DNA of 64,000 nucleotides. Origin: Streptomyces noursei ATCC 11455. GTDB lineage: Bacteria; Actinomycetota; Actinomycetes; Streptomycetales; Streptomycetaceae. Made by a program: the position numbers and the translations under genes. Shown here one piece after another: positions 11,259-33,034 of this stretch (position 1 is its first letter; every line of letters starts with the position of its first letter). Under the pieces are notes generated by a model, which made no database searches, was not told where the DNA came from, and worked only from the letters and a program-made list of their open reading frames with translations. The stretch lies in assembly GCF_001704275.1 (NCBI RefSeq), contig NZ_CP011533.1, positions 1,736,001 through 1,800,000 on the forward strand, read 5' to 3'.

Positions 11259-11508
11259 CTGCAAAATCCCCCCGGCGTCTCCACTTCAGACCTGTGCACA
11301 GCGCCTAACGCACACCGGATCCATCAAACCGTCTGCCAGAAGGCCTGGTCAACCGATCTCTTGGGGCGACTCAAGACCTGATGACTGTGTCTTAAAAGCG
11401 ACCCTGATCCGCTCACATAACAGCTGGGACAAGGTGGGCCAATCTGGGCAGGGCGCGCCTCGCAGGGCGGCCCAGAGCCGCTGGCCGGCCTGACGTCAAC
11501 CATGGTCG

Positions 11509-18469: not shown

Positions 18470-19267
18470 TCAGGTGCACTTCCGCGGAACTTCCGCCTCG
18501 GGGCAAGACCACGTCCGTTGTAGAAGGCGTTGGGCACGAACGAGATCCTCGGGGGTGTCCACGGCGAGGCCGGCGTCTGCCACGGGCAGCATCCGCACGT
18601 TGTACGAGTGCTCGACGAAGCGCAGCATCTCGACGCCCTCGGTGCGTTCGAGTGGCCCCTGGTCCAGCTCCCGAAAGACCTCCAGGCCGGCGGCCGTGAA
18701 TCCGTACAGCCCGAGCTGACGGAAGTAGGCCGGGTAGCCGCTCCGCGGGTACGGAATCGGCTGCCGAGAGAACATCAAGGCGTTGCTGTCCGTGCCGATG
18801 ACGACCTTTACGACGTTGTGGTCGATGGCAGCTGCTGTGTCGGCTATGGGCGTGTAGGCATTGACCGCTGGAGTGGCGGCTTCGAGGTGGGCCACGGCTT
18901 CCGAGACGGCGTCGATCGCCGCAGGATCGATGAACGGTTCGTCGCCCTGGACGTTGATGTATCCATCGGCTTGGAGGTGCTGGGCACATGCGGCGACGCG
19001 ATCGGTGCCGGTGGCGTGCTCGCCCGTCATCAGGCAGGGGATGCCGAGCTGTTGGCACACTTCCTCGATGCGGTGGTCATCAGTCGCGACGACCGCGTCG
19101 TCAAGGCATTGAGCTTCTTGGCATCGCTGGTGGACGTGCCACAGCAGAGGCTTGTCGCCGAGCATGGCCAGGGGCTTGCCGGGAAATCGTGATGCGCCCC
19201 AGCGGCATGGGATCACCGCTATGTGCCGGCGTGGGGGGCGTTTGGGCTTCGTTGGCGTAACGGCCAC
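18470..19267 (-). CDS. CMP-KDO synthetase-like cytidylyltransferase
   Basis: A 265-residue nucleotidyltransferase of the KdsB family, which couples CTP and a 3-deoxy-ulosonate to give a CMP-sugar and PPi. Visible landmarks: N-terminal IPCRWGASRFPGKPL (nucleotide loop), TGTDRVA, INVQGDEPFI (metal-binding Asp), FSRQPIPYPR, LERTEGVEMLR and a C-terminal DTPEDL. All key positions of KdsB are kept and the length is normal. KDO is a Gram-negative sugar, so in an actinomycete the substrate is probably a different ulosonate in a secondary pathway. It is the last gene of a long minus-strand operon, 24 bp after the NUDIX gene, with GGAGA five bases before the GTG start. A partner glycosyltransferase could be the 623-residue GT at 29510-31381. 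Confidence 0.88.
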   Translation of the reverse strand: MAVTPTKPKRPPRRHIAVIPCRWGASRFPGKPLAMLGDKPLLWHVHQRCQEAQCLDDAVVATDDHRIEEVCQQLGIPCLMTGEHATGTDRVAACAQHLQADGYINVQGDEPFIDPAAIDAVSEAVAHLEAATPAVNAYTPIADTAAAIDHNVVKVVIGTDSNALMFSRQPIPYPRSGYPAYFRQLGLYGFTAAGLEVFRELDQGPLERTEGVEMLRFVEHSYNVRMLPVADAGLAVDTPEDLVRAQRLLQRTWSCPEAEVPRKCT

Positions 19268-19291
19268 GGTGTTCTCCGGACGGTAGATGGG

Positions 19292-19828
19292 TCAGGAACT
19301 CGTGGAACGGTGCAGGAGGGCGAGCTTGCTAGCGATCGTGGGAGCAGTGACCTCGGGGAAAGGAAGCCACTGGAAGTCCGTGACTTCCTCTGGTTGGAGG
19401 TGCATCTTCCGCTCGCCGAGGAGATGGAAGGCGAACCGGAAGTCGTAGTGGTGGTGCCGTGGTTCGCCTCTGTCGGGGTTGGCTGCGATGTCGTGTACAT
19501 CGATGTCGAACGGGATGTCTGCGTAGCCGTTCAGCGTCGCCAGGGCGCTGGACGGAATGCCGGCTTCTTCTTGGAGTTCGCGTAGAGCGGCGTCAGGAAG
19601 AGTGGTGTCGGCTGCCTCGATATGGCCGCCGGGCAGCAGGTCCTTGCGAAGGATCCGGTGGTGGATGTGCAGCACCCGGTCGTGCCGGTCGATCACGATG
19701 GCACTGCAAGTGACGTGCCCCGGGTAGGTCTTGTGGCTGGTGGGATCTTCCCGGCGTGCCAGGGCCTCCCGTAGTGGCTGGAGTGCTTCCTGCTCGTCGG
19801 AGTGGCGTACAAGGTATGCCGCGGTCAC
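19292..19828 (-). CDS. NUDIX hydrolase
   Basis: A 178-residue protein with a NUDIX box GGHIEAADTTL...ALRELQEEAGI (about residues 68-92), carrying the R-E-L-x-E-E-x-G metal-binding core. Such enzymes cleave nucleoside diphosphates linked to another moiety. The start is GTG without a strong ribosome-binding site. It sits between the SAH-hydrolase-like and KdsB-like genes in the operon and could remove a phosphate or pyrophosphate from a nucleotide intermediate, in keeping with the hydroxymethyl-CMP hypothesis, or sanitise side products. Substrate cannot be read from sequence. Confidence 0.85.
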   Translation of the reverse strand: MTAAYLVRHSDEQEALQPLREALARREDPTSHKTYPGHVTCSAIVIDRHDRVLHIHHRILRKDLLPGGHIEAADTTLPDAALRELQEEAGIPSSALATLNGYADIPFDIDVHDIAANPDRGEPRHHHYDFRFAFHLLGERKMHLQPEEVTDFQWLPFPEVTAPTIASKLALLHRSTSS

Positions 19829-19864
19829 ATTGCGGATGTGCGTGCGGGATGGAGGAATGGCGGT

Positions 19865-20986: not shown

Positions 20987-21013
20987 AACGGCTCCTCTCT
21001 CATCGTGCAACGG

Positions 21014-22009
21014 TCAGGCGGCCGATTGGTGGGTGGGTCCGGTCATGGCGTGCATCTGTGCGCGTATGCCGGCGGTCAGATCGACGGTGGGCTGCCAGCC
21101 AAGTACGGAGCGGGCCCGCCGCGGGTCGGCGCGGGTAGTCAGGACGTCTCCGTTGCGGGCGCCGTCGGTGTGGACGTGGATCTCTCGGCCGGCGAGGGAC
21201 TTCGCGATGTTGATCACGTCGAGCAAGGAAGCGTTCGAGCCGCCGCCGACGTTGACGATGCCTGTGTCGATGGGGGCGCTCGCGGCGGAGATGGTGGCGG
21301 TGACGACGTCGTCGATGTAGGTGAAGTCACGGCGCTGGTGGCCGTCCCCGTACAGTCGCAGTGGTTGCCCGGTCAGCGCGGCGTGGAGGGCGCGGTGGGT
21401 GAACATGTCGGGGCGCTGGCGGGGGCCGTAGACGGTGAAGTAGCGGAGGGCGACGACGCTGGTGGAGCAGTCGGCTCGGGAGGCGTGGGCGAGGCAGAGC
21501 TGTTCCTCGGCGAGCTTGGTGACGGCGTACGGGGATGCCGGCCGGGGGTGGTCGCCTTCCGTGCTGGGACCGCCGTTTGTGGGGCCGTAGACGCTGGAGG
21601 ATGAGGCCACGACCAGCCGTGGGACGCGCATGCGGGTGGCGGCGTCCATCAGCCGCTGGGTGGCGAGGATGTTGGCGTTGACGTACTCGCTGAATTGCGG
21701 TCCCCATGAGGGTCGTACGCCGGGGATGCCTGCCAGATGGAAGATCGCGTCTGCGTCGAAGAGGAGTGGATCGATGGCGCAGTTGAGGAGATCCGCGGTG
21801 ATGTGCAGGTAGCCCGGGAGGCCGTGCAGTGGGGCGAGGTTGGCGGCGGCCGTCTGGTCCCTGGTTGGATCGCGGCGGTCGACTCCGATGACGGTGGTGC
21901 CTGCCTGGGCGAGGGTCTGGGCGAGGTGGGATCCGATGAAGCCGGCCGCGCCGGTCACAAGGGCACGTCGGGGGATCGCGGGGGTCGCTGTGGAGTGGGT
22001 GTCCGGCAC
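21014..22009 (-). CDS. NAD-dependent sugar epimerase/dehydratase (extended SDR)
   Basis: A 331-residue extended short-chain dehydrogenase. It has the NAD motif TGAAGFIGSHL near residue 20, SSSSVYG for the catalytic Ser, and YAVTK for the Tyr-x-x-x-Lys pair; RDFTYIDDVV and GGGSNASLLDV are typical of GalE/nucleotide-sugar epimerases. It should act on a nucleotide-bound sugar (epimerase or 4,6-dehydratase; an epimerase is more likely from VYGPRQRPDM). The GTG start at 22009 has GGGAG six bases upstream. An N-terminally extended frame exists upstream but overlaps the kinase gene and is not coding. In the operon it probably shapes the sugar used by one of the two glycosyltransferases. Confidence 0.9.
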   Translation of the reverse strand: MPDTHSTATPAIPRRALVTGAAGFIGSHLAQTLAQAGTTVIGVDRRDPTRDQTAAANLAPLHGLPGYLHITADLLNCAIDPLLFDADAIFHLAGIPGVRPSWGPQFSEYVNANILATQRLMDAATRMRVPRLVVASSSSVYGPTNGGPSTEGDHPRPASPYAVTKLAEEQLCLAHASRADCSTSVVALRYFTVYGPRQRPDMFTHRALHAALTGQPLRLYGDGHQRRDFTYIDDVVTATISAASAPIDTGIVNVGGGSNASLLDVINIAKSLAGREIHVHTDGARNGDVLTTRADPRRARSVLGWQPTVDLTAGIRAQMHAMTGPTHQSAA

Positions 22010-22047
22010 GGAATGCTCCCGAGGTGGGCGGGTTGGCGGGTGGGGCG

Positions 22048-22884
22048 TCAGCTGAGTTGGGACAGGACGGTGCGGCCGTGGGCGCTCAGGGTCATGTCGC
22101 CTTGTTCGTGGCCGCGGACGAGTGCGGTGACGGCTTCGATGGCGCCGAATCGCTCCATGAGCCGTTGCTCGGCGTCTGTGAGGCGGCTCCCGTAGCCGGT
22201 GAAGAACGCCTCGCGCAGCCGGGGGGCTGCCTGCCAGTGGCGGAAGTGAAGTCGGGCGAAGTCCCGGATGCGGGCGTCGCGTCGCATGTGCTCGAAGTCG
22301 TAGGTCCACAAGCCGTGTCCGACGTGCCAGTTCCTGGGCTGGTAGTCGAGGTGGCAGACGGCACTGTCCATCCTGCTGCCGGCCAGCTCGTCCGCGGTCC
22401 GCGAGAGGATCTTTCGCTCGGCGTGGGACAGGAGGCTGGCGTGGTCGGCCCTGGCGACCCAGCTTCGTAGCCGATCCGCCAGGGCGGCTCCGGCCCCCGC
22501 AGTCGTACGGCGGCGCGTCGCATGATGAAGGAGCTGGAGGACGGCTCCGGCGTCGTGGTGCGCCCTCGCCTCCTCGTCCGAACCCGGCGGCAGTGCGTCG
22601 CCGTTGTGCCCCGGCACCGCGGTGATGAGGAGCGTGTGGATGGAGTCCTGGCGGGCGACCAACTCGGGGGCGTGGTCCTTGAGATAGCGGCGCCACGTCA
22701 TGTACGCCTGCGTCTCCTGGACGTAGCGCGCCTGGCTTCCGTACTGCTTGGCGACGTAGGTGTTGCCCTGGGTGTCGACGAGCTGGAGAAGGTGGGACGG
22801 GAGGTTCGGGGTGTCGACGACGCTGACCGGCCCGACCGTGTGGCGTGCGAATGCGATGCGCGGGTCTTCGTTGGTCGTGCTCAC
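22048..22884 (-). CDS. APH-fold small-molecule kinase (first of three)
   Basis: A 278-residue aminoglycoside-phosphotransferase-fold protein. The catalytic loop HLDYQPRNW (H-x-D-x-x-x-x-N) and the metal-binding YDFEHMRRD segment are both present; an N-terminal lobe Lys (YVAKQYG) fits the ATP site. It likely phosphorylates a hydroxyl of a pathway intermediate, or confers self-protection. The GTG start at 22884 overlaps the stop of the histidine phosphatase gene (GTGA), so the two are co-translated, giving a kinase/phosphatase pair. A longer upstream frame is excluded by that overlap and by lack of a ribosome-binding site. Confidence 0.85.
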   Translation of the reverse strand: MSTTNEDPRIAFARHTVGPVSVVDTPNLPSHLLQLVDTQGNTYVAKQYGSQARYVQETQAYMTWRRYLKDHAPELVARQDSIHTLLITAVPGHNGDALPPGSDEEARAHHDAGAVLQLLHHATRRRTTAGAGAALADRLRSWVARADHASLLSHAERKILSRTADELAGSRMDSAVCHLDYQPRNWHVGHGLWTYDFEHMRRDARIRDFARLHFRHWQAAPRLREAFFTGYGSRLTDAEQRLMERFGAIEAVTALVRGHEQGDMTLSAHGRTVLSQLS

Positions 22885-23537
22885 GGCGTCGCTCCCGCTC
22901 GTAGGGCGGAGAGGTGGGCGGTGTCGTTGTGCCGGTCGAGCATCCACCTGCGCTGGCCGAGCCGATTGAGATGGTGCTGCCATCGGGTGATGGAGGCATG
23001 TGAGACGGTGAAACCCGCTTCCGTCATCGACCCGAGCCCGAGCAGCAGAGCGTGGGCAGCAAGGATTGTTTCGCCGTGGGCGGCGAGCAGAACGCGGTCG
23101 CCATGGTGCTGGACGATGAGGTCGTGGAGGAACGCTTCGGCCCGGCGGAGGTAGCCGTTCCAGGTGTCGGAACCGGCGGCCCAGGGTTGGTCGGGGTGGG
23201 CATGCGGGCCGCCGTTGGCCACGGTTTTCACGTAGTGCCAGGGCTTGCCGTCGGCCGCGCCATGAACAGGTCCGTCGAGGCCAGGTTCAACGAGCGGCTC
23301 CAGGTCGAGGGCCTGCCCGAGGATTTCTCCGCTCTGCTGGAGGCGCAGTCGGGGGCCGGCATACAGCGCGGTGAAGGGCTGGGCCCGATGCTCGGCGGCC
23401 AGCCTGGCTGCGGCCCTCTCGACCTGGACGTATCCGAGGCGGGTGAGCCCTGTGCAGGTGGCCGGGCCGCCGACGAGGCCATCGGCATTGCACTGCGCTT
23501 CTCCGTGGCGGACGAAGACGAGTTCGGTGGTGATCAC
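22881..23537 (-). CDS. Histidine phosphatase family protein
   Basis: A 218-residue member of the phosphoglycerate-mutase-like phosphatases. The RHGEAQCN motif (His11 is the phospho-acceptor) lies at the N-terminus, and the second catalytic His is in LLAAHGETI near residue 155. The arginine in GPRLRLQQS fits the phosphate pocket. The start is GTG, and the stop overlaps the following kinase start. In the operon it probably dephosphorylates a small-molecule intermediate; the substrate is unknown. A role in removing a protecting phosphate at a late step is one possibility that fits a neighbouring APH kinase. Confidence 0.88.
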   Translation of the reverse strand: MITTELVFVRHGEAQCNADGLVGGPATCTGLTRLGYVQVERAAARLAAEHRAQPFTALYAGPRLRLQQSGEILGQALDLEPLVEPGLDGPVHGAADGKPWHYVKTVANGGPHAHPDQPWAAGSDTWNGYLRRAEAFLHDLIVQHHGDRVLLAAHGETILAAHALLLGLGSMTEAGFTVSHASITRWQHHLNRLGQRRWMLDRHNDTAHLSALRAGATP

Positions 23538-23554
23538 GAGGGACCTTGGGTTGG

Positions 23555-24295
23555 TCAGCGCTGGGGCAGCCAGCGGTAGCGGTAGCCGTTGCGACCGGCA
23601 TAGGGCGCGGTCAGCACGGCATGAAGTGCGAGAAAGTTGCCGAGGCGCTCTCGGCTCGTCGTACCCAGCTGGGCGTCGTGCTGGGCGGCGGCGCGGTTGT
23701 ATACGTGCAGAGCTGCTGCGATGTCGGACGGGGCGATCGGGCCGTGCGTCATGATCAGCGTCGCGATCAGCTTGGCCAGGTCGTATCCGAAGGGTGCGAG
23801 GGTGAGGTCGTCCGTATCGAGACTGAAGACCGTGTCGTCCCCAGTGATCAGGAAGTTCCGTGGGTTGCAGTCCTTGTAGAAGGCAGCAGGCCCGTCGGCG
23901 GAGCGCTCCAGCAGCGTCAGCATGGCGTGCAGGGCAGATGGATTGGGCAGGAAGCCCTGCTGCAGCCGTTTACGCAGAGCCGCTTCCCGGCACGAGCGGA
24001 AATCCTCGAAGACGGTGACGTCCCGGAAGGTGTGCGGCCTGTCCATCTGGGCGCGGTGCAGGTCGCTTGCCCAAGCGGCGCCGTGCGCGTCTCCCAGGAT
24101 CTCGGCGAGGCGTGGGAGGTCTTCTCTGCGGGCGTGGCGACCGTCGATGAACTCGAACGTGAGACTGTTCGGGCCGACCGCCGTCAGGGCCGGCTGCCGC
24201 AGCGGCTTGGCATGGGTGGCGAGCCATCCGTGGTGACGGGCCGCGGCAGCCGCCTTTGCGAAGGTCTCGTAGTTCTTGGTGAATCGGAACGACAT
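23555..24295 (-). CDS. APH-fold small-molecule kinase (second of three)
   Basis: A 246-residue phosphotransferase. Its catalytic loop is KDCNPRNF, with Asp and Asn kept but the usual initial His replaced by Lys, and the Mg-binding stretch is SLDTDDLT. The N-lobe lacks an obvious glycine loop, as is usual for APH folds. The ATG at 24295 shares a base with the methyltransferase stop (TGATG), which excludes a longer frame. It ends 17 bp before the phosphatase gene. Likely phosphorylates an intermediate of the cluster; the altered loop makes substrate transfer from known APHs unsafe. Confidence 0.8.
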   Translation of the reverse strand: MSFRFTKNYETFAKAAAAARHHGWLATHAKPLRQPALTAVGPNSLTFEFIDGRHARREDLPRLAEILGDAHGAAWASDLHRAQMDRPHTFRDVTVFEDFRSCREAALRKRLQQGFLPNPSALHAMLTLLERSADGPAAFYKDCNPRNFLITGDDTVFSLDTDDLTLAPFGYDLAKLIATLIMTHGPIAPSDIAAALHVYNRAAAQHDAQLGTTSRERLGNFLALHAVLTAPYAGRNGYRYRWLPQR

Positions 24296-25146
24296 CAGGA
24301 CTGGCCCCTCTCGGACCGTGCCACGACGTACGTGATGACCGAGGTGGTGGCGATCGGCTTGTCCACGTGCCATTCATGAAGTGCGGCGGCCAGCGCGCCC
24401 GGGTTGCCGTACAAGCCGGGCGCGAGGTCGTACTTGGGGTTGGTGGCGAGGTATTCGGCGGCGTGATCGAGATCGGAGAACTCAAAGCGGTGTTCCTCGT
24501 GCTCGATCGCCACCACGTCCATGGTCGGCTTCGTCAGGTCGGCGAGGTTGCCTCCGTGCGCGGTGGCGTAGAGGCTCTCGTGCCGCTCGGCGCGTGGGTC
24601 GAGTCCTGCTGCCACCAGGGCGTCCAGCTCTTTGTAGCTGTCGATCGCCTTGGTGACGAGCACCGCGATCCCGCCGGGGACCAGGGAGCGGGCGATCTCG
24701 GCGATGGCGCGGCCGGGTTCGGGTGAGTGGTAGAGGCAGAACGCGGCAACAGCCAGCTCACACGACGCGTCGGGGAGGGGCAGATGGTGGAAGTCCCCTT
24801 GGAGGAAGGCCAGTTGTGTTCCGGGGTGGTGGCCGACACGCCTGCGGGCGGCGGCCACCAGTGCCGGAGAGGCATCGATGCCCAGGAGGCGCTGCGGCCT
24901 CAGCTGCTCGGCCAGGACTCGGGTGCTGGTGCCGCGACCACAGCCGATGTCCGCCACCAAGCCGAGGCGACGGCCGGCCCCGGCCTGGTGCGCTTGAGCC
25001 AGCTGGACGATGGCCTCGGGGACGGGACGGCCGGCGGTCCTCGCCCGCATCAGAGCAGTGGAGCGGCTGGCCAGCCGAGCGTCGTGGCCGTACAGCTCGC
25101 CCTGTCGATCGGGGTCGAGAAACGGGTTCGTGATCACCTGCCGCAC
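24295..25146 (-). CDS. Class I SAM-dependent methyltransferase
   Basis: A 283-residue methyltransferase with motif I VADIGCGRGTST (about residues 65-75), acidic motif GIDASP, and LQGDFHHLPLPD with post-I aromatic F-C-L-Y-H, all typical of UbiE/Methyltransf_11 enzymes. Target atom cannot be inferred. An SAH-hydrolase-like gene lies four genes downstream, consistent with methylation in the same pathway. The gene starts 22 bp after the P-loop kinase stop and overlaps the next gene by one base. Confidence 0.88.
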   Translation of the reverse strand: MRQVITNPFLDPDRQGELYGHDARLASRSTALMRARTAGRPVPEAIVQLAQAHQAGAGRRLGLVADIGCGRGTSTRVLAEQLRPQRLLGIDASPALVAAARRRVGHHPGTQLAFLQGDFHHLPLPDASCELAVAAFCLYHSPEPGRAIAEIARSLVPGGIAVLVTKAIDSYKELDALVAAGLDPRAERHESLYATAHGGNLADLTKPTMDVVAIEHEEHRFEFSDLDHAAEYLATNPKYDLAPGLYGNPGALAAALHEWHVDKPIATTSVITYVVARSERGQS

Positions 25147-25168
25147 CCCCGCTCGGGGCGCGGCGCGC

Positions 25169-25681
25169 TCAGGCGTGCTGTGTGGCGATCTGCTGCAGCC
25201 AGCGCCGCGTGTGCCGGCGGCCGGTGAGCATCACCACATCGGCGCGCCCGGAGGCGAACTCCTCGATCTTGGCCATGACCCGCGGTCGCATCTTGCGCCG
25301 ATACGTGGCCACGTACTTGATCACGCCCCAGTGGATGCGGTTGTGCACCCCGTTGCCCTTGTGTCCGGCACCGTGCCGGATCTGCCGGGAGAAGATCCCC
25401 CACAGTGCGGCCGGGGTCGAGACGTCCATCAGCACCACGGTGTCGCAGGCTTCGAGCCGGATCTGCAGCGTGGAGTTGTAGTTCCCGTCGATCACCCAGG
25501 CCGGCTGCGCGACCAGGTCGCGCTGTACCTCGGCGAATTTCTCCATGGGCAGGGCGTTCCACTCGTCGTCGTAGAACGCGGCATCCAGGTGCGTCACCGG
25601 TGCATCGAGCAGCGTGGCCAGCTGGCGGGCCAGATGGGACTTGCCGCTGCCTCCGCAGCCGACGATGGCGACCTTCTTCAT
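25169..25681 (-). CDS. P-loop kinase, adenylate-kinase/FlaR-like
   Basis: A 170-residue P-loop protein with Walker A GCGGSGKSH at the extreme N-terminus, LDAAFY and DGNYNSTL in the substrate region, and an R-x-x-R lid segment (RRHTRRWL) near the end. The pattern is that of small nucleotide or shikimate-type kinases often labelled topology-modulation (FlaR) protein. In this setting it may phosphorylate a nucleoside or nucleotide. The ATG at 25681 has GGAG five bases upstream. The 93-bp gap before it (25682-25774) is the largest within the operon. Confidence 0.82.
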   Translation of the reverse strand: MKKVAIVGCGGSGKSHLARQLATLLDAPVTHLDAAFYDDEWNALPMEKFAEVQRDLVAQPAWVIDGNYNSTLQIRLEACDTVVLMDVSTPAALWGIFSRQIRHGAGHKGNGVHNRIHWGVIKYVATYRRKMRPRVMAKIEEFASGRADVVMLTGRRHTRRWLQQIATQHA

Positions 25682-25774
25682 GGTGCTCCAGGGTAGAGGT
25701 ACTCGGACGCCCGGACGGCAAGCCCATCGGGACATATCCACGTGATCCAGGCGTCATGGCCCGGGCAAGGACAC

Positions 25775-26833
25775 TCATCGGGCGACCGCCTGCCGTTGGG
25801 CGACACCCGCGTTAGTCGCCGTGTCCAGCACGGATTCCAGGGCGTCGGCCTGGCGGCTGAGCCGGAAGAGCTCCAGCCGGCCGAGGCAATCCGAGATCAG
25901 TTCGGCGTGCTGTTGGCTACCCGCGATCTGCTGGAAGGCCGCGATGCGCCGGATCACGTGGGTGCCCGTCGTGACGACAAGATCTTCGGGGACGAACCGT
26001 TCGACGTGCTTGATGCCGGCCGGCGCGAGCGGTAGGCAGCCGGCGAGTACGGCTTCGAAGATCCGCTGTGTCATCTGGCCTGCCACTGCGTATCGCTCCG
26101 GCAGGAGGAGGACGGTGGCCAGGGTGCCGTTGTAGAGGCGGGAGACATCGGTGAAGGGGATCCGTCCGAGGAAGCTGACGTGCGGCCAGCACTCGGTGCG
26201 GGTCCATTTGCCGCCGACCCAGTGCTCGAAGCGGGCGGCGGCCGGCGCGAAGAAGCGGTCGAATGCGTCATCGCGGTCGTACTGGTTGCCGGCGTAGCCG
26301 AGCGGCGTCCTACGGTCCTCGCCGGCCAGGGCGACCGGGTCGGCGCCGTCCAGAAGCGCGTCATCGATGGGGAAGAGCACGCGGTGGGCGCCGGGGGTGG
26401 GCGCGAGGGCGGCTTCGCACACCATGACGTTCGGGGTTCTGCGCCAGATGCTGTCTTCCCGCAGTTGCCGGTCCTTGTCCCAGATCACGGTGGGGGTGCG
26501 GCGACGAACGGTGTAGTGCTTGAGCAGCTCCGCCTGGCGGTGGAGGTCACAGGTATGTCCCACGGTGCCGCAGGGGCTGGTGTTGCGCCCTTCGATGGGC
26601 CAGCGCCATTCGAGGAACAGCAGGTCGATGTCCGGAATGCCGCCGTCGAAGGCGTAGTGGTCGCCGAGAGCGTCACCGGCTTCGATCCGATCACGGTTGG
26701 TCTGCAGAAAGACGATCTCGTGGCCGCGCCCGAGAAGCGCGTCGATCAGCGGGCGGCGGTGGCTCCGGCCGCCGTCAGGGGTGTTGGTGATCCCGTTTCC
26801 CAGGAAGCCCCAGAAGCTGTAACCGATCTTCAC
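25775..26833 (-). CDS. GT-B glycosyltransferase, CgeB-like
   Basis: A 352-residue protein with a GT-B layout resembling CgeB/DUF3880 glycosyltransferases. The N-terminal domain begins KIGYSFWGFLGNG with a nucleotide-sugar-type loop. The C-terminal donor domain has SFLGRIPFTDVSRLYN and TQRIFEAVLAGCLPL, the usual E-x7-E-like donor signature region. The start is GTG at 26833, overlapping the carbamoyltransferase stop (GTGA). A longer frame to 27394 is antisense-type shadow of the carbamoyltransferase gene and not supported. It should attach a sugar to the pathway core; donor and acceptor are unknown. Confidence 0.8.
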   Translation of the reverse strand: MKIGYSFWGFLGNGITNTPDGGRSHRRPLIDALLGRGHEIVFLQTNRDRIEAGDALGDHYAFDGGIPDIDLLFLEWRWPIEGRNTSPCGTVGHTCDLHRQAELLKHYTVRRRTPTVIWDKDRQLREDSIWRRTPNVMVCEAALAPTPGAHRVLFPIDDALLDGADPVALAGEDRRTPLGYAGNQYDRDDAFDRFFAPAAARFEHWVGGKWTRTECWPHVSFLGRIPFTDVSRLYNGTLATVLLLPERYAVAGQMTQRIFEAVLAGCLPLAPAGIKHVERFVPEDLVVTTGTHVIRRIAAFQQIAGSQQHAELISDCLGRLELFRLSRQADALESVLDTATNAGVAQRQAVAR

Positions 26834-28557
26834 TTGGAGATCCACCGCCCTTCGATGAGCAGGGCATCCAGCCCTGAGTTCGCCAGGCAGTCCAGAGCCA
26901 TCTCCGGCGTGCCGCAGATGGGCTTGCCCTTGACGTTGAGCGAGGTGTTGATCAGGACGGGTACTCCGGTGCGGCGGGCGAACGCCTCCAGGACCGCGTG
27001 CACGAAGGGGTTCTGTGCGGGCGTGACGGTCTGGAGTCGGGCGGTGCCGTTGGCATGGACGATCGCGGGAATCTGCTCGCGGGCGGTATCCGTCACCTGG
27101 GAGGCCATGGACATGTACGGCGCGGCCTGGCCGAGGGTGAAGAACTCCCCGGCGCGGGCGGCAGTGACCATGGGCGCGAACGGGCGGAAGGGCTCGCGGA
27201 ACTTCACCGTGGCGTTGAGCCGCTCGACCACCCCGGCTTCGAGGGGAGAGGCGAGGATGGACCGGTTTCCCAGAGCACGTGGGCCGGCCTCGACACGGCC
27301 CTGGAACAGCCCGACGATCATTCCCTGGGCCAGCTGATCCGCAAGGAACTCCGCGGCCTCGGCACCGAGGAGCTTCTGTTGCAGGTTGGGCCACGGCGTG
27401 AGGTCCAGCACCGGCTCCGGGAAGGCCGGGCCGAGGTAGCAGGCACGGGCGATCCCGGACAACGGCCGTGGGCTGCCGCTGTCGGTGTGCACGGCGACTG
27501 CGGCTCCGATCGCGGTACCGGCGTCACCGGGAGCCGGCGGAACGAAGACCTCGTCGAAGATGCCGGCCTCGATGATCCGTCCGATGCTGACGCAGTTGGT
27601 GGCGACTCCGCCGCCCACGCACAGCCGCCGCGAACCGCTCAGCACACGGGCTCGTCTCGCGAGGTGGAGCATGATCTGCTCGGTGCGCTCCTGGAGGGCG
27701 GCGGCCAGATCCTGGTGGATCTCCTGGACCGGCTCGTCCGGGTGCCGGGGCGGGCAGGTCTCGACGGTGAGCCGAGGGGAGGTGCGCGGGTAACCGGAGG
27801 TGAGCACGCGGGGAGGGAAGTACGCCGGGTCCACGGTGAAGCCGGTGGCAGTGGTGTGGACCGCGCGGGAGAAGGTGTGACGGAATCGACCGGGGTTGCC
27901 GAGCGCGGCGAGGGCCATCACGGTGCCTTCTTCGTCGCCACGGCGCCAGCCGAGGTGCTCAGTGACCGCTCCGTACACATAGCCCAGCGACGCCGGGTCC
28001 ATGAGCTCTTCCAGCATGCGAACCCGCGGGCGGGTGCTGTGGTGAGCGTGGGCGATGGTCGTGGTCTGTCGCTCGCCGAGGCTGTCGACGACGAGGACGG
28101 CCGCCTCCTCCCAGCCCGATGCCGTGAACGCGGCAAGTTGATGGGCTCGATGGTGCAGTACGGGGATGACACGAGCACCGGGGAAGTGCTGAGCGAGGAG
28201 TTTCAGGCGACGCCGGGTGCGTACGGCGACCTTGGAGAAACCCGCGGCCCTCGGAAGGGCCCGCCGTCGCGTCGTACCCGACAGCGCCATGCGCAGGGCG
28301 GCAGGAGTCTCGGCGAGGTAGCGCATGGGCTGGAAGTTGTACGCGACGGCGTCGATGTCGGCGGGCGTGATACCTGCGTCGTCCATCAGCCACGCGATGG
28401 CCTGACGGGGGTAGTCACGGGTGTGTTTGTGCTGGGACAAGCGCTCCTCTTCGACGAATCCCACCAGTTCGCCGTCGATGAGGAGTGCGGCAGCGGAGTC
28501 GTGGGTGAAGGAGCAGATGCCCAGCACCACGGACGGCTTGCGGCTCACGGCAGCCAT
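26830..28557 (-). CDS. O-carbamoyltransferase, NodU/TobZ/CmcH family
   Basis: A 575-residue carbamoyltransferase of the family that uses carbamoyl phosphate and ATP to form carbamoyl-AMP and then carbamoylates a hydroxyl of an antibiotic or sugar. Landmarks: N-terminal GICSFTHDSAAALL, the metal-binding HHRAHQ motif (near residue 134), GGGVATN, and the C-terminal EAGPRALGNRSI and NTSLNVKGKP. Length is normal. The ATG at 28557 shares a base with the upstream TS-like stop (TGATG), which fixes the start. Directly downstream of a predicted pyrimidine hydroxymethylase, its acceptor could be the new hydroxymethyl group; a sugar hydroxyl is the alternative, as in TobZ, NovN and PolO. Confidence 0.93.
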   Translation of the reverse strand: MAAVSRKPSVVLGICSFTHDSAAALLIDGELVGFVEEERLSQHKHTRDYPRQAIAWLMDDAGITPADIDAVAYNFQPMRYLAETPAALRMALSGTTRRRALPRAAGFSKVAVRTRRRLKLLAQHFPGARVIPVLHHRAHQLAAFTASGWEEAAVLVVDSLGERQTTTIAHAHHSTRPRVRMLEELMDPASLGYVYGAVTEHLGWRRGDEEGTVMALAALGNPGRFRHTFSRAVHTTATGFTVDPAYFPPRVLTSGYPRTSPRLTVETCPPRHPDEPVQEIHQDLAAALQERTEQIMLHLARRARVLSGSRRLCVGGGVATNCVSIGRIIEAGIFDEVFVPPAPGDAGTAIGAAVAVHTDSGSPRPLSGIARACYLGPAFPEPVLDLTPWPNLQQKLLGAEAAEFLADQLAQGMIVGLFQGRVEAGPRALGNRSILASPLEAGVVERLNATVKFREPFRPFAPMVTAARAGEFFTLGQAAPYMSMASQVTDTAREQIPAIVHANGTARLQTVTPAQNPFVHAVLEAFARRTGVPVLINTSLNVKGKPICGTPEMALDCLANSGLDALLIEGRWISK

Positions 28558-29513
28558 CACCTCCTCACCGCCGTTGCGGTGGTCAGCGAACTGCCGGCGC
28601 GGTTCGTCAGCTCCGAGTACCAGGCGGTCAACGCTCCCCCGAGGGGCCCACGCGTGGCACCGGCGATACGCGTCGCCTGCTCCCGCTGACCGCCCTTCCA
28701 CAGCCGGTAGCTGCGCATGGTCTGTGCCATGGCATCCCAACCTGGGTGGCCGGTCTCCTCGCCGGCCTGGGTCCGGTCGAGAAGCTGCTCGAACCCGTCC
28801 CACGGCGTGGTCAGTTCAGGCATCAACGGGCTCGCCGTCACGCCGGTCAACGCATCGGCGTGCTCGATGTCGCGCTCGTAGATGTGGAGGGAGCCGACGT
28901 GGTGGTGGTATTCGCCCAGGTCGGCGTCCAACCATCCGGCCACCAGCTCGTGGAGCGTGGTGAAGAAGAACAGGTCGTACGGCATGCCGATCCACACGTC
29001 CTGGCCGCGCATCGTGGTCGACATGTGCAGTCGTCCGCCGCGCAGGTTGAAGCGGAAGCCGAGTGTGCAAGGGACGTCTTTATGGCCGGCGGTGTCGCGG
29101 GCCGGGTCGTAGAGCTGGATGATCGCCCGCCGGGAATCGGGGTCATCCTTGAGGATCTCCACGGCGCGGTGGAGCTGGTCGACCGTGCCTCCCCAGCTCC
29201 GCATCCTGGGCCCATAGGCGCCACGGAGGACGCCATCGTCCGCGTACTGTCGCAGCCGCGCGTTGTAGTCGAAGATCCACGGAGCATCGGTGCCGGAAAG
29301 GTGCCAGACGGTCTCGGCCACCGCGAAGGCGGGGTTCACGATGCGGGCGGGCGGCGCGTACAGGAGCCGGGCCCTGGGCTGGGTCAGGCGCATGGTGACG
29401 TCGAGGACCTCGCGCGTGGCCATCCCGCGGGGGCTGATCTTCTCCCCGCTCTTGGCCAACGTGACGGCCCCGGTGAAGAGTTCGGCGACGCTGTCGGCGG
29501 TCAGGTTCGTCAT
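28557..29513 (-). CDS. Thymidylate-synthase homologue, predicted (d)CMP 5-hydroxymethylase
   Basis: A 318-residue TS-fold enzyme. The catalytic Cys149 is in VPCTLGF, the phosphate-binding Arg pair is SRR (128-129), and the nucleotide-sugar contacts His210/Tyr212 lie in GSLHIY. In true thymidylate synthases the base-selecting residue is Asn (P-F-N; Asn177 in E. coli). Here the same position is Asp180 (MPYDLFFF). Asp at this site is the known hallmark of dCMP hydroxymethylase of T-even phages and of CMP hydroxymethylases of nucleoside pathways such as MilA (mildiomycin). I therefore predict transfer of a hydroxymethyl group from methylene-THF to C5 of CMP or dCMP. It overlaps both neighbours (ATGA with the GT, TGATG with the carbamoyltransferase). 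Which sugar (ribo or deoxy) is preferred cannot be told. Confidence 0.88.
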   Translation of the reverse strand: MTNLTADSVAELFTGAVTLAKSGEKISPRGMATREVLDVTMRLTQPRARLLYAPPARIVNPAFAVAETVWHLSGTDAPWIFDYNARLRQYADDGVLRGAYGPRMRSWGGTVDQLHRAVEILKDDPDSRRAIIQLYDPARDTAGHKDVPCTLGFRFNLRGGRLHMSTTMRGQDVWIGMPYDLFFFTTLHELVAGWLDADLGEYHHHVGSLHIYERDIEHADALTGVTASPLMPELTTPWDGFEQLLDRTQAGEETGHPGWDAMAQTMRSYRLWKGGQREQATRIAGATRGPLGGALTAWYSELTNRAGSSLTTATAVRR

Positions 29514-31381
29514 CGGACGGTGGCTCCCTCGCCCCGGGGCGGGCTGGAGTCGGCGCCCTCGGGTTGGTGGTCTGTTGGGTCGGTGTGCGAGTTGCCGGCC
29601 TCGGCCTGGCGCATGATGAGCTGGGCGACGTCAGCAGCGCTGCGGCCTCGCCAGCGGCACACCGCATCGCGCGCTTCTCGCGGTACTTGGGTGCTCCCCC
29701 GGCTCACGAGGTCGAGCGCGTCCGTAACGTCGGAAGCCGTACGGCAGCGATGCGCGGCGGCATGTTCTGCGAGACCGAGCGTGCGGTCGCCGGGACGTTC
29801 CAGTTCGACGACGGGTACATCGAGGAGGACGGCTTCGATGCCGCATGTGGAAGACACGCTGACCACGGCATCCGCACCCGCCAGGCAACCGCGCGCTCCG
29901 ACGCGCGGGTCGGCCACGGCCACCGGCGGCTCTCCGCCCTCCCGCAGCAAGCGGTCGAAGACATGCCCCTCTTGGACTGGGTGCGGGGCGATAACCAGGC
30001 CCCAGCATCCCCGGGCATTCATCAGGCCGTCGAGGATGATGTCCGCCTGGGCCTGCAAGCGCTCCGGGCTGAACGGCTGACATGCCCACACCGCGATCCG
30101 CTCCGGGCCGTGTCCGTTGCAAGCTCCGAGCAACTTCTGGAGGTAGCGGCGTTGCGCTTCTCTCCCAAGGTCGGCGAGAGCATCGAAGCGCGGCTGCCCC
30201 AGGACGTGGATCTCGGCCCCGGGGTGCCGAGCCCACGCCTGCGCCGCGGCGACGTCGCGGTCACCCATCACCACGATGTGGCGACTGTGGAGGGCGGGCC
30301 AGGCGACCGACTCAGGTGTCCACGCGCCGTGCTGGACGTTCACGGTGGTCACACCGTGCCGCTCGGCGACATGGGCGGCGAGGGCCCCCAGCGGACTGAT
30401 GTCGTTGCTCAGCAGCACAGTATGCGGGCGTACCGCGTCGAGCAGCTCGTCGAGCCACTCCTCCACTCGCGCTACGGCTTGCCAGGACGGCTGCGTACAT
30501 CCACCGCTCTCTTCGAGAAGTGCGGCGGCGAGGCGCTCCAGCCGGTCCAACCGAACGGTGTGAACGCCGACTTGGACCGTGCTATCGACTCCGGTGGGTT
30601 CTTCGGCATCTGGCCGCAGTCCGGGGACCGTTCCAGAAGCCGTGAGCGCCGCAGAGGGTGCTGGCCGCAACGTGACGGACCCGTTTGCGGGGGCTGGGCA
30701 GCGTTCCACCGGGTCCGTGGCGAGGTCGACCAACACGCTGGATCGGCCTTCGCCTGCAAGTTGCTCCAGTACCGGCAGCAGGGTTTGCGCGTGTCGTGAT
30801 GACCAGGACAGTGCCACTACCTCGGCCGTAGCCATGGCCGAAGACGTCGACGCGTCTACGCGGCGGCTGTCGAGATGTGGAGCGGTGAGCTTTCGCAGCC
30901 GGGCGGAGCGCGCCGGATTGTGCGGCGCCTGCGCACCGAGGGCGTACGCAACGCCCGACCAGGTGACGGTGTAGGCGCGGTACTCGCGTGAGCTGCATTC
31001 CCGCAACCCGAGAAGCCCCTCGTAGGGAGCAAGGGTCAAAGGCCCAGGGGTCGCAGCGAACTCGGGCCAGGCACTCAGGGCCAGGAGCTTCCGCACCAGC
31101 TGCGTGATCAGACGCCGTATGGGGACGTGCTGCACGTACAACCACGAGGCCCCACCCTGCGTCTCGGCGAGCCGCGAGCTGTACGCCTCCAGCGCGGACA
31201 TGACCTTGGTGACGTACCGGTCCACCTCTGTTCGGTCGACCGGCAGAGCCTCAAGATCCAACGTGGTGATGTGGGCGGCCGTGATGTGTCGCAGGGGCGC
31301 TTCCCCGACGAGCGCCCAGACGATCTGCTCCCCCACGAACGTCCGGGCGAGGCCGAGGGCACTCCTCTTCACGGTGCTCAC
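29510..31381 (-). CDS. Large GT-B-type glycosyltransferase
   Basis: A 623-residue protein. Residues about 1-180 are a helical/alpha-beta extension I do not recognise. The rest resembles GT-B glycosyltransferases of the CDP-glycerol glycerophosphotransferase, polysialyltransferase or KDO-transferase type: LSNDISPLGALAAHVAER, TVNVQHGAW, IHVLGQPRFD, APHPVQEGHVF and a donor-site VSVSSTCGIEAVLLDVPVVEL. CMP-activated donors are common in these families, and a CMP-sugar synthetase-like gene ends the operon, so a CMP-ulosonate donor is plausible. The GTG at 31381 overlaps the HAD stop, and its stop overlaps the TS-like start. The C-terminal tail is hydrophilic. Confidence 0.72.
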   Translation of the reverse strand: MSTVKRSALGLARTFVGEQIVWALVGEAPLRHITAAHITTLDLEALPVDRTEVDRYVTKVMSALEAYSSRLAETQGGASWLYVQHVPIRRLITQLVRKLLALSAWPEFAATPGPLTLAPYEGLLGLRECSSREYRAYTVTWSGVAYALGAQAPHNPARSARLRKLTAPHLDSRRVDASTSSAMATAEVVALSWSSRHAQTLLPVLEQLAGEGRSSVLVDLATDPVERCPAPANGSVTLRPAPSAALTASGTVPGLRPDAEEPTGVDSTVQVGVHTVRLDRLERLAAALLEESGGCTQPSWQAVARVEEWLDELLDAVRPHTVLLSNDISPLGALAAHVAERHGVTTVNVQHGAWTPESVAWPALHSRHIVVMGDRDVAAAQAWARHPGAEIHVLGQPRFDALADLGREAQRRYLQKLLGACNGHGPERIAVWACQPFSPERLQAQADIILDGLMNARGCWGLVIAPHPVQEGHVFDRLLREGGEPPVAVADPRVGARGCLAGADAVVSVSSTCGIEAVLLDVPVVELERPGDRTLGLAEHAAAHRCRTASDVTDALDLVSRGSTQVPREARDAVCRWRGRSAADVAQLIMRQAEAGNSHTDPTDHQPEGADSSPPRGEGATVR

Positions 31382-32046
31382 AGCAGGCTCCCCGCGACAA
31401 AGGGACCCGACTCGCAGCCCGTGCCCAGCAACCGGAGGAGGTCCCGCGGGTCATCCGCGATCTCGGGTGCCGGGCTGCCGGGCTCGCCATAGCCCCAGAC
31501 GGCATGCACGTACGGGACACCGGCCCGCCGTGCGCACTCGCGGTCGACGGCCATATCGCCCACGAACACCGCGGACGCGGGATCAGTGGCGAGATCAACG
31601 AGGGCGAGCATCAGCGGGTCCGGTGCAGGTTTGCCCCGCACCTCACCGCTGGGGGTCCGTACCGCGGCAAAAGGGCACCCGAGCCGGGCCAGCAGTGGAG
31701 CGGCGCGGTCAAAGGGTTTGGACGTGACGACCCCGAGCAACCAGTCGGCAGCAGCGAATGCGTGGAGCACTTCCTCCACACCGTCGAACGGCTGGGCCAG
31801 CTCGCAGCTCTGCTGCGACGCCTCCGCGTACGTCTCGTGAACAAGGTCCGCATCGGCGAGGCCGAGCCGTTCCATGATGTCGTCGAAGGGACGACCGAGG
31901 TGCTGCTCGTATGCCTCGAACGGTACGTCGATGCAGTGGTGTTCGCGTACCGCTTGCCATGCCTGCCGCATGATCGGTCGCGTATCGAGCAGGACACCGT
32001 CGAGATCGAGAACGAGCGCACGCCTGCCCTGGGAAGACGCCGTCAT
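31378..32046 (-). CDS. HAD-superfamily phosphatase
   Basis: A 222-residue HAD hydrolase of the beta-phosphoglucomutase/phosphoglycolate-phosphatase group. Motif I is LDLDGVLLDT (both catalytic Asp), motif II VVTSK, motif III Lys in RGKPAPDP and motif IV FVGDMAVD. It probably dephosphorylates a sugar- or nucleotide-phosphate of the pathway; in KDO biosynthesis a HAD enzyme (KdsC) does the equivalent step, and this one could act before the KdsB-like enzyme. The ATG at 32046 overlaps the LuxR stop, tying structural genes to their regulator. Confidence 0.9.
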   Translation of the reverse strand: MTASSQGRRALVLDLDGVLLDTRPIMRQAWQAVREHHCIDVPFEAYEQHLGRPFDDIMERLGLADADLVHETYAEASQQSCELAQPFDGVEEVLHAFAAADWLLGVVTSKPFDRAAPLLARLGCPFAAVRTPSGEVRGKPAPDPLMLALVDLATDPASAVFVGDMAVDRECARRAGVPYVHAVWGYGEPGSPAPEIADDPRDLLRLLGTGCESGPFVAGSLL

Positions 32047-32510
32047 CGGGATCCCACCCCTGCGCCGGCGTTGAGGATGTCCCAGCTCCAGGCGAGGCTT
32101 ACTCCGTGCACGGCGTCAGCGGCACCGATCTTGTCCAGCAGCCGCCGGATGTGCTTCTTGGCACCCTGGTGTGACATCAGCTGCGCCTTCGCGACTTCTT
32201 TCGCACCCGCGCCCCGGGCGAGCAGCCTGAGCGTGGTCGTCTCCTCCTCGGAGAGCGCCGGCCGTACGGCCTCCGCGCCAGCTGGCCGGGCTTCATGGCC
32301 TGCTCGGCACGCCAGGTCGGCGAGGGCGGCCCGGCGGCTCGTACCCAGCTTGGTCCGGATACTGCGGAGGTAGCCCTTGACGGTGTCCTCGGCCAAGCCG
32401 GTGCGGGCCGCGATCTCACTGTTTGCCAGGCCATCGGCGACCAGGCCCAGAATCTCGGTTTCCCTCCCTGTCAGGAGGGACAGCAGCGCAGGCGGTGAAT
32501 GTGCGGGCAT
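32043..32510 (-). CDS. LuxR-type regulator with two HTH domains
   Basis: A 155-residue protein made of two LuxR/GerE-like helix-turn-helix units: LTGRETEILGLVADGLANSEIA...EDTVKGYL (about 13-55) and LSEEETTTLRLLARGAGAKEVA...SHQGAKKHI (about 85-130), with no sensory domain. The second unit keeps the pattern but is less canonical. It heads the biosynthetic operon and is translationally coupled to the HAD gene (ATGA), so it is probably a pathway-specific, autoregulated activator. The ATG start has GGAG nine bases upstream. Confidence 0.85.
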   Translation of the reverse strand: MPAHSPPALLSLLTGRETEILGLVADGLANSEIAARTGLAEDTVKGYLRSIRTKLGTSRRAALADLACRAGHEARPAGAEAVRPALSEEETTTLRLLARGAGAKEVAKAQLMSHQGAKKHIRRLLDKIGAADAVHGVSLAWSWDILNAGAGVGSR

Positions 32511-32572
32511 GACGAACAGCTCCAGGGTCTGATCGGATGCGTGAAGTGACGAGGGAGAGGTGCTGGCCGCGG

Positions 32573-33034
32573 TCAGACGGCCGGCAGCATTGACGGGCAG
32601 TGCAGGAAGGCAAGGACCCGTTTGCCTGTGCCATCCGGCTTGAGATGTGAGGTCCAGGCATCTGCCTCGGCTGCCACGATGTGCAGGCCCCGGCCATTGA
32701 GCCCGCTGATCGGTCCCGTACGCGGGGCGGGGAGCTGGCAGGAGTTGTCCTCCAGCTCGATTCCTACGACGTCATTCCGGTAGGAGATCGTCATGGTGAT
32801 CTCCTCCAACAGGCCCTCGTCCTTGGTCCTGCCGTGGCGGCGTGCGTTCGTGACGAGTTCGCTGACGATGAGCAGTACGCGATCGGCGAGCGCGTCCAGG
32901 CCCCACTCGGTGAGCGTGGTCCGGGCGAATGCCCGGGCCCGACGCGGTGCGAGGTCGTCGGAGGACAGTGAGACGCTGGATTGCAGTTCGGCTCGTTCGA
33001 TGATGGCTTCCATGGCCAGGGCGGCGATGTCCAT
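32573..33034 (-). CDS. HATPase_c regulator, RsbW/SpoIIAB-like
   Basis: A 153-residue GHKL ATP-binding protein of the anti-sigma-factor kinase type. The N-box is LIVSELVTNARRHG, the G1 region ELEDNSCQLP has D followed by N instead of the usual D-x-G, and the G2 box is GRGLHIV. Streptomycetes carry many of these; they control sigma factors or cluster regulators. It precedes the LuxR gene by 62 bp on the same strand and stands divergently to the XRE gene. I chose the ATG at 33034 because AGGGCAGG lies just upstream; the longer frame has no ribosome-binding site. Confidence 0.82.
   Translation of the reverse strand: MDIAALAMEAIIERAELQSSVSLSSDDLAPRRARAFARTTLTEWGLDALADRVLLIVSELVTNARRHGRTKDEGLLEEITMTISYRNDVVGIELEDNSCQLPAPRTGPISGLNGRGLHIVAAEADAWTSHLKPDGTGKRVLAFLHCPSMLPAV

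What the first reader, a model, noticed from the sequence alone, without database searches (positions are those of the whole stretch)
18470..33034. Undescribed-looking nucleoside or CMP-sugar biosynthetic operon
Fourteen minus-strand enzyme genes, mostly overlapping by 1-4 bp, combine a predicted (d)CMP 5-hydroxymethylase, a TobZ/NodU carbamoyltransferase, two glycosyltransferases, a KdsB-like cytidylyltransferase, an SAH-hydrolase-like protein, a methyltransferase, NUDIX, two APH kinases, a P-loop kinase, two phosphatases and an epimerase, headed by a coupled LuxR gene. Established: MilA/BcmA-type TS homologues make 5-hydroxymethyl-CMP, and NodU-family enzymes carbamoylate hydroxyls. Inference: the product is a carbamoylated, glycosylated 5-hydroxymethylcytosine nucleoside, or a ulosonate linked through CMP. 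I know no pathway with this gene set.
Basis: partly seen in the sequence, partly recalled or inferred. Interest (0 to 1): 0.9.

Follow-up and report, generated by a model that had tools for sequence, protein, structure and literature searches.

The report
Streptomyces cassette for decorated hydroxymethylcytosine nucleosides
A 14-gene cassette found in many Streptomyces appears to reuse the kind of enzymes with which viruses decorate cytosine in their DNA, together with ten further enzymes, probably to build a sugar-bearing modified cytosine nucleoside that was not found described in the papers searched.

Summary
The operon is real: LuxR plus 14 open enzyme genes. It is not unique: its hydroxymethylase has an orthologue in 24 of 295 same-genus genomes, own included, and the genes found are collinear at 51 of 53 named loci, mostly Streptomyces. 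The main new evidence concerns glycosyltransferase GT2: its relatives lie near cytosine hydroxymethylases in this cassette, in a second bacterial cluster type, and at 8 of 12 viral loci; its model's top fold match is T4 DNA beta-glucosyltransferase, tied with other GT-B enzymes. With a MoeE5-like epimerase this suggests a uronosyl-5-hydroxymethyl-(deoxy)cytidine, further carbamoylated. HAD, KdsB and GT1 look like an optional arm: KdsB without HAD or GT1, 0 of 64 regions, though this is not statistically independent. Ten paper searches listed no such cluster. Substrates, sugar and product are untested.

The parts
32043..32510 (-). LuxR-type regulator (155 aa, two GerE stretches), overlaps HAD by 4 bp
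   Evidence: PF00196 5e-22; junction; absent from most relatives at the threshold used
31378..32046 (-). HAD phosphatase (222 aa); with KdsB and GT1 the proposed optional arm
   Evidence: PF13419 3e-24; nearest NCBIfam AHBA_synth_RP and PGP, both below cut-off; absent with KdsB present in 0 of 64
29510..31381 (-). GT1: GT-B fold protein with about 180 extra N-terminal residues (623 aa); proposed second glycosyltransferase
28557..29513 (-). TS-like cytosine-nucleotide hydroxymethylase (318 aa)
   Evidence: PF00303 3e-25; closest PDB MilA; residue tables
26830..28560 (-). NodU/TobZ-family O-carbamoyltransferase (576 aa)
   Evidence: PF16861 3e-63, PF02543 3e-41, on a longer frame; PHROG 1601 3e-101; best PDB GdmN 300 bits
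25775..26833 (-). GT2: glycosyltransferase related to viral proteins linked with hydroxymethylases (352 aa)
   Evidence: PF13524 7e-6 on a longer frame; viral relatives near TS; model pLDDT 85.7, top fold match T4 BGT, tied with others
25169..25681 (-). PLK: small P-loop kinase (170 aa)
   Evidence: PRK08118 1.5e-44, below its cut-off; PHROG 2107 thymidylate kinase 2e-5; found at 48 of 53 named loci
24295..25146 (-). SAM-dependent methyltransferase (283 aa)
   Evidence: PF08241 1.6e-21
23555..24295 (-). APH1: APH-like kinase (246 aa)
   Evidence: no Pfam family; profile hits PDB 2q83 YtaA at 0.002 (YtaA as an APH-like kinase is recalled); conserved KDxNxRN and DxDD motifs
22881..23537 (-). Histidine phosphatase branch 1 (218 aa)
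   Evidence: PF00300 2e-22
22048..22884 (-). APH2: APH-like kinase (278 aa)
   Evidence: no Pfam family; HLDYQPRN motif; present or absent together with HPh in 64 of 64 regions
21014..22009 (-). EPI: NAD-dependent sugar epimerase (331 aa), proposed UDP-glucuronate 4-epimerase
   Evidence: PF01370 4e-51 on a longer frame; closest PDB MoeE5, 266 bits; three UDPG/MGDP dehydrogenase matches over cut-off in the genome
19865..21010 (-). SAH-hydrolase-like NAD enzyme (381 aa); optional
   Evidence: PF00670 8e-18; Lys186/Asp190 equivalents kept, His301/Asn191 replaced in 51 of 51 rows
19292..19828 (-). NUDIX hydrolase (178 aa); optional
   Evidence: PF00293 1.5e-15
18470..19267 (-). KdsB-like cytidylyltransferase (265 aa); optional, last gene
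   Evidence: PF02348 1e-38; NF003952 over cut-off; closest PDB 1gq9, a 3-deoxy-manno-octulosonate cytidylyltransferase, 160 bits
32573..33283 (-). Upstream ATP-binding (anti-sigma-like) gene, start uncertain
   Evidence: PF13581 8e-9; a relative lies upstream at many, not all, cassette loci

Best explanation
The operon is a bounded biosynthetic cassette whose core (TS, GT2, EPI and a nucleotide-type kinase) is the kind of enzyme set with which some viruses make glycosylated 5-hydroxymethylcytosine, joined to a carbamoyltransferase, a methyltransferase and an APH-like kinase. Proposed working: TS converts dCMP (or CMP) and methylene-THF to the 5-hydroxymethyl nucleotide; EPI turns UDP-glucuronate into UDP-galacturonate; GT2 puts that sugar on the 5-CH2OH; NodU carbamoylates a hydroxyl, more likely of the sugar since GT2 would use the 5-CH2OH; kinases and phosphatases move protecting or activating phosphates. 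In the long form HAD, KdsB and GT1 add a CMP-activated acidic sugar, and the SAHH-like and NUDIX enzymes do a further redox and pyrophosphate step. The product would be a small, very polar nucleoside. Shown: gene content, conservation, linkage. Inferred: every substrate, the order of steps, and that the product is a free small molecule.
For: Gene content and order. Hydroxymethylase: MilA as closest structure, Cys and Asp conserved. GT2 linkage: of 26 genomes of the family with a GT2 hit I fetched 14 regions, mostly the more divergent; 14 of 14 hold a TS homologue, two of them (L196, L197) a MilA-type TS in an otherwise different cluster. Of 12 viral loci with a GT2 relative (L142-L153), 8 hold a TS homologue within 8 kb, two of these weak (L143 3e-10, L149 4e-7); DNA polymerase, nucleotide pyrophosphohydrolase or dCMP deaminase families were recognised in several. 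L145 has GT2, a thymidylate-kinase-like gene, TS and epimerase in a row. Maribacter phage Molly has UGDH, epimerase, 'beta glucosyl transferase', TS. Fold: top Foldseek and VIA rows are T4 BGT. Minimal form EPI-TS-NodU-GT2-PLK-MT-APH1 at L192-L195, L198, L200. Epimerase: MoeE5 best. Optional arm: KdsB without HAD or GT1 in 0 of 64.
Confidence: 0.45

Rival explanations
1. One reading: a MilA/BcmA-like ribonucleoside pathway in which CMP becomes 5-hydroxymethyl-CMP and NodU carbamoylates its 5-CH2OH, with glycosyltransferases adding sugars elsewhere.
For: MilA is the closest solved structure; a carbamoyltransferase from a sewage metagenome contig acts on 5-hydroxymethylcytosine in ssDNA, RNA and free nucleotides (PMC8670742, passages); Gly in place of MilA Ala176 leaves room for a 2'-OH (inference).
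Against: Lys133 is Arg in 54 of 54 and Ala176 is Gly or Ser; no MilB-like N-glycosidase family among the 14 proteins; GT2's relatives suggest that the 5-CH2OH is glycosylated.
Confidence: 0.2
2. The cassette makes a hypermodified nucleotide that enters nucleic acid, or decorates hydroxymethylcytosine already in DNA, in the bacterium itself or in invading phage.
For: TS, GT2, EPI and a kinase resemble viral DNA-modification sets; TS residues are nearer the dCMP type; the sister cluster L196/L197 also has an NDP kinase and an RNase_T exonuclease family protein.
Against: No polymerase or dCMP deaminase family among the 14 proteins; ten of the 14 had no match in the 40 viral loci; 0 of 10 cassette proteins match PADLOC at 1e-5.
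Confidence: 0.1
3. The cassette builds a surface glycan or glycolipid with a CMP-ulosonate; the TS-like protein and GT2 have drifted to other substrates.
For: GT1 weakly matches 'surface carbohydrate biosynthesis protein', and a capsule synthesis enzyme (rank 1), a polysialyltransferase and TagF appear in its Foldseek list; KdsB-like gene; carbamoyl and methyl groups are common on glycans (recalled).
Against: HAD and KdsB are both missing in 12 of 64 complete-core regions and GT1 too in 8, while NodU and GT2 were each found at 52 of 53 named loci; no flippase or polymerase family among the 14; no PF00793 synthase in the genome, though a NeuB homologue exists elsewhere.
Confidence: 0.12
4. It is an already characterised antibiotic cluster that my paper library or recall does not cover.
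For: The cassette is common (TS orthologue in 24 of 295 genomes); most subscription papers and MIBiG were out of reach.
Against: Ten paper searches listed no such cluster; listed database names of GT1 and GT2 relatives are mostly hypothetical or generic (best 120 of 238 and of 963).
Confidence: 0.1

Closest known systems
Mildiomycin (milA/milB) and bacimethrin (bcmA) pathways
   Same: A TS-family enzyme that hydroxymethylates a cytosine nucleotide; a LuxR-type regulator in mildiomycin (MilO; title and abstract start seen)
   Different: CMP-preference residues absent; no MilB-like N-glycosidase family. The other genes of those clusters were not compared here; differences there are from recall
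T-even and related phage hydroxymethylcytosine glycosylation (dCMP hydroxymethylase plus DNA glycosyltransferase; RB69 arabinosylation)
   Same: Hydroxymethylase plus a GT-B glycosyltransferase, at some loci with sugar-nucleotide genes or a thymidylate-kinase-like gene (PMC6024577 passages)
   Different: Bacterial chromosome; no replication genes; ten enzymes without a match in the viral loci
5-hydroxymethylcytosine carbamoyltransferase of the MetaGPA study (PMC8670742)
   Same: NodU-family enzyme co-occurring with a TS that has Asp at position 177 (passages)
   Different: Window NodU scores best with GdmN among structures and at most about 30% identity with the phage records listed; GT2 lies beside it. 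The MetaGPA enzyme itself was not compared
MoeE5 of moenomycin synthesis (UDP-glucuronate 4-epimerase, function recalled)
   Same: Closest solved structure to EPI, 266 bits
   Different: Different gene company
CMP-KDO synthetase (KpsU/KdsB)
   Same: Whole-length family match; Gln, Asp, Glu, Tyr and Asp of the pocket mostly kept
   Different: KDO-contact His (recalled) is Gln in 20 of 21 rows, and the PYPR Arg is Lys in 8 of 21; no PF00793 match for a KDO-8-phosphate synthase in the genome

Membership tests
MilA/BcmA CMP hydroxymethylase | Catalytic Cys and cytosine-selecting Asp (MilA Cys155, Asp186) | tested here: met
   Cys in 54 of 54, Asp in 53 of 54 with one gap (residue roles from PMC5175136)
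MilA/BcmA CMP hydroxymethylase | Lys133 and Ala176, which set CMP preference | tested here: not met
   Arg in 54 of 54; Gly 48, Ser 5, gap 1
MilA/BcmA CMP hydroxymethylase | Activity on CMP | not testable with these tools
   needs enzyme assay
Viral dCMP hydroxymethylase type | Arg, Ser, Asp at the three positions | tested here: inconclusive
   Viral rows R/S/D in 29 of 36 (some contigs twice, one row misaligned); cassette R/G/D 48, R/S/D 5 of 54; cassette TS one clade, sister group unresolved
Mildiomycin-type cluster | MilB-like N-glycosidase beside the hydroxymethylase | tested here: not met
   no such family among the 14 proteins in Pfam
Hydroxymethylcytosine glycosyltransferase (T4 BGT-like) | GT-B fold like T4 BGT | tested here: inconclusive
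Hydroxymethylcytosine glycosyltransferase (T4 BGT-like) | Genetic linkage to a cytosine hydroxymethylase | tested here: met
   14 of 14 bacterial GT2 regions fetched (of 26 genomes with hits); 8 of 12 viral loci within 8 kb
Hydroxymethylcytosine glycosyltransferase (T4 BGT-like) | Transfer of a sugar to 5-hydroxymethylcytosine | not testable with these tools
   needs enzyme assay
NodU/TobZ O-carbamoyltransferase | Both Pfam domains | tested here: met
   PF02543 and PF16861
5hmC carbamoyltransferase subgroup (MetaGPA) | Grouping with enzymes found next to D177 TS | tested here: inconclusive
   PHROG 1601 341 bits but GdmN is the best structure; no tree made; one viral TS locus, L157, has a 23% NodU relative
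UDP-glucuronate 4-epimerase | SDR motifs GxxGxxG and YxxxK, closest to MoeE5 | tested here: met
   motifs
UDP-glucuronate 4-epimerase | C4 epimerase activity on UDP-glucuronate | not testable with these tools
   needs enzyme assay
CMP-KDO synthetase | Family profile over curated cut-off | tested here: met
   NF003952 247.5 bits, cut-off 193; the other KdsB models are below theirs
CMP-KDO synthetase | Conserved His of the LKHVG motif (KDO contact, recalled) | tested here: not met
   Gln in the window and in 20 of 21 other rows, His in 1; some rows are the same strain
CMP-KDO synthetase | KDO-8-phosphate synthase in the same genome | tested here: not met
   PF00793 no match at 1e-3 (control rings in 11 of 14 genomes)
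S-adenosylhomocysteine hydrolase | Catalytic Lys186, Asp190, Asn191, His301 (numbering recalled) | tested here: not met
   Lys and Asp kept, Asn to His and His to Ser in 51 of 51 rows and the window
Known anti-phage defence systems | Match to a PADLOC model | tested here: not met
   0 of 10 cassette proteins at 1e-5; HAD, MT, HPh, EPI and LuxR were not given

The most novel reading that the evidence does not exclude
A viral-type hydroxymethylcytosine decoration module has been domesticated by Streptomyces into a standing chromosomal pathway that makes a hypermodified cytosine nucleotide, either placed in the cell's own or an invader's nucleic acid, or released as a nucleotide-like weapon, with a sister version (MilA-type TS, NDP kinase, exonuclease, GT2) doing the same at the ribonucleotide level.
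Probability: 0.12. Interest if true: 0.9.

Novelty: new variant of a known kind. Interest (0 to 1): 0.66.

Why it matters
If right, about one in twelve genomes of the sampled genus (24 of 295 by the TS gene; a few of the copies looked at are cut short) carries an unrecognised nucleoside pathway, and GT2 would, as far as I know, be the first relative of viral hydroxymethylcytosine glycosyltransferases placed in a bacterial biosynthetic cluster. It would link phage DNA hypermodification with nucleoside natural products, give a small-molecule route to sugar-bearing hydroxymethylcytosine building blocks, and offer a concrete genome-mining handle (TS next to GT2).

Tried and rejected
Rejected or weakened: (a) MilA/BcmA membership, by two specificity residues. 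(b) SAH hydrolase membership. (c) An ordinary KDO pathway: no PF00793 match; the NeuB homologue lies about 2.1 Mb away, near a second, weak KdsB-like hit. (d) A known defence system: none at 1e-5 for 10 of the proteins. (e) Xinaomycin (PMC4139839) and saskemycin (PMC12637814): the passages read do not describe this cluster. (f) Of 14 more distant TS loci of the genus (30-46% identity), none shares the cassette; isolated hits were a NUDIX in L137, P-loop kinases in L138 and L139, and APH3-, XRE- or ATPc-like regulators' genes in several.

Led nowhere: PDB profile of GT1; the GT2 profile against PDB gave T4 BGT at E 0.15 but not with a larger alignment, so I do not count it; two viral GT2 proteins had no match in phage records; the independence test for HAD and KdsB had too few pairs; paper searches listed nothing of use. 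Not done: family annotation of the flanking genes, a NodU or GT2 tree, comparison with the MetaGPA enzyme itself.

Papers: PMC8670742, PMC5175136, PMC6024577, PMC4139839 and PMC12637814 were seen as passages only; PMC11784345, PMC4081090 and the rest as search listings with abstract starts. No supplements read. Recalled, from no call: the full bacimethrin, mildiomycin and polyoxin gene sets, the function of MoeE5 and of PDB 6zl6, the KDO-contact role of the His, SAH hydrolase residue numbers, the nature of YtaA.

Full report
WHAT IS THERE. The window lies at 1,736,001-1,800,000 of a single 9.8 Mb contig. Its GT1 and GT2 match Streptomyces noursei proteins at 97% and 96%, so the organism is probably S. 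noursei or a near relative (inference). On the minus strand LuxR is followed by HAD, GT1, TS, NodU, GT2, PLK, MT, APH1, HPh, APH2, EPI, SAHH-like, NUDIX and KdsB-like, all open. Seven of 14 junctions overlap by 1-4 bp, seven have gaps of 3-93 bp. Families come from Pfam, NCBIfam and PHROGs. The genome has one other TS match, about 7 Mb away, with an ordinary-TS residue set.

IT IS A SHARED CASSETTE. A TS orthologue at 64% identity or more occurs in 24 of 295 same-genus genomes, the window's included. A scan of named genomes gave 53 loci, nearly all Streptomyces, with one Actinacidiphila, one Asanoa, two Micromonospora and one unclassified actinobacterium. At 51 of 53 the genes found are in the window's order and strand; the two exceptions are Micromonospora, where EPI lies upstream of TS. 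All 14 genes were found at 31 of 53 and the core six at 47 of 53; some of the rest are cut by contig or locus ends or are cut cassettes. In the 22 neighbourhoods printed the flanking genes differ, so the cassette has sharp borders and seems to move as a unit; I did not annotate the flanks by family search. A GT2 profile finds 26 of 297 genomes of the family and 2 of 396 across the phylum, own genome included in both.

MINIMAL AND EXTENDED FORMS. Six loci (L192-L195, L198, L200) have EPI-TS-NodU-GT2-PLK-MT-APH1 and no match to HAD, GT1, HPh, APH2, SAHH-like, NUDIX or KdsB; two NUDIX genes of another type follow in L193. Among 64 regions with a complete core and the KdsB position covered (from 72 with distinct TS), KdsB occurs with HAD and GT1 in 50 and without either in 0; HAD without KdsB in 2 (G159, L067); GT1 without KdsB in 6; HPh and APH2 agree in 64 of 64; NUDIX without SAHH-like in 0 (39 both, 4 SAHH-like only). 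This suggests add-on modules. Only 2 supported independent pairs were available (p 0.5; 5 pairs on all branches), so shared ancestry could explain the pattern.

THE HYDROXYMETHYLASE. The closest solved structure is MilA (136 bits; best ordinary TS 72). The nucleophile Cys is in 54 of 54 cassette sequences and the cytosine-type Asp in 53 of 54 (one gap). MilA's CMP preference was traced to Lys133 and Ala176, and changing them to Arg and Ser reversed it to dCMP (PMC5175136, passages). The cassette has Arg in 54 of 54, and Gly in 48, Ser in 5, gap in 1. Twelve of 14 more distant TS of the genus have the MilA set K/A/D; 29 of 36 viral rows have R/S/D (some viral contigs appear twice, one row is misaligned, and the Molly phage TS has Asn, not Asp). 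So the cassette enzyme looks like a viral dCMP type in which the window's clade has Gly for Ser. Whether it takes dCMP, CMP or both is open. The 14 cassette sequences used in the tree form one clade (SH-aLRT 99); its sister group is not resolved.

MECHANISM PROPOSED. dCMP or CMP to 5-hydroxymethyl nucleotide (TS); UDP-GlcA to UDP-GalA (EPI); uronosyl transfer to the 5-CH2OH (GT2); carbamoylation (NodU), methylation (MT) and phosphorylation (PLK, APH1); in the long form a CMP-activated acidic sugar (HAD, KdsB, GT1), phosphate exchange (APH2, HPh) and SAHH-like/NUDIX steps. Only gene content and linkage are shown. My odds: GT2 acts on a 5-hydroxymethylcytosine compound about 0.65; free small-molecule product about 0.6; the whole scheme 0.45. 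The APH-like kinases could also serve self-resistance.

KNOWN OR NEW. Ten paper searches listed no description of this gene set; most subscription papers and MIBiG were out of reach. Hydroxymethylcytosine nucleosides, carbamoyltransferases and phage hmC glycosylation are each known; the combination in a bacterial cassette appears new, so I rate it a new variant of a known kind.

Noticed in passing
L196:9476-15884 and L197:5187-13669 (also L141): A second GT2 cluster: TS (MilA-type residues in L141, identical to L196), NDP kinase-like, CxxxCxxC protein without Pfam family, RNase_T exonuclease, P-loop kinase, aldo-keto reductase, GT2, NUDIX (families from L197); in L196/L141 a DUF6093 gene lies beside it.
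   Followed up: partly
IMGVR_UViG_2818991273_000001 (L141): A contig catalogued as viral whose compared genes are 100% identical to the bacterial locus L196, so probably a provirus edge or bacterial flank.
   Followed up: partly
L142-L152: Uncultured viral genomes with a GT2-like glycosyltransferase, often a TS-like hydroxymethylase, and at some loci nucleotide pyrophosphohydrolase, dCMP deaminase or DNA polymerase; possibly undescribed sugar-hmC DNA modifications.
   Followed up: partly
G000:C1:3858983-3861148: NeuB homologue with a weak KdsB-like hit close by, perhaps a separate nonulosonate locus in the window's genome.
   Followed up: no
window 33351-35674 (+): NsdA-like/XRE regulator gene followed by an APH-family gene, divergent from the operon; at high identity only upstream of L033, L034, L035 and L053 among the loci.
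   Followed up: no
G016 (= L058), G077 (= L063), G225, L091, L096: Cassettes in which no gene was found after GT2, APH2, MT, GT2 and TS respectively; other ORFs follow: perhaps decaying copies.
   Followed up: no
window 10950-11264 and 12624-14810 (-): Small and large genes whose N-termini look like WXG100/ESX-type proteins (by eye only).
   Followed up: no
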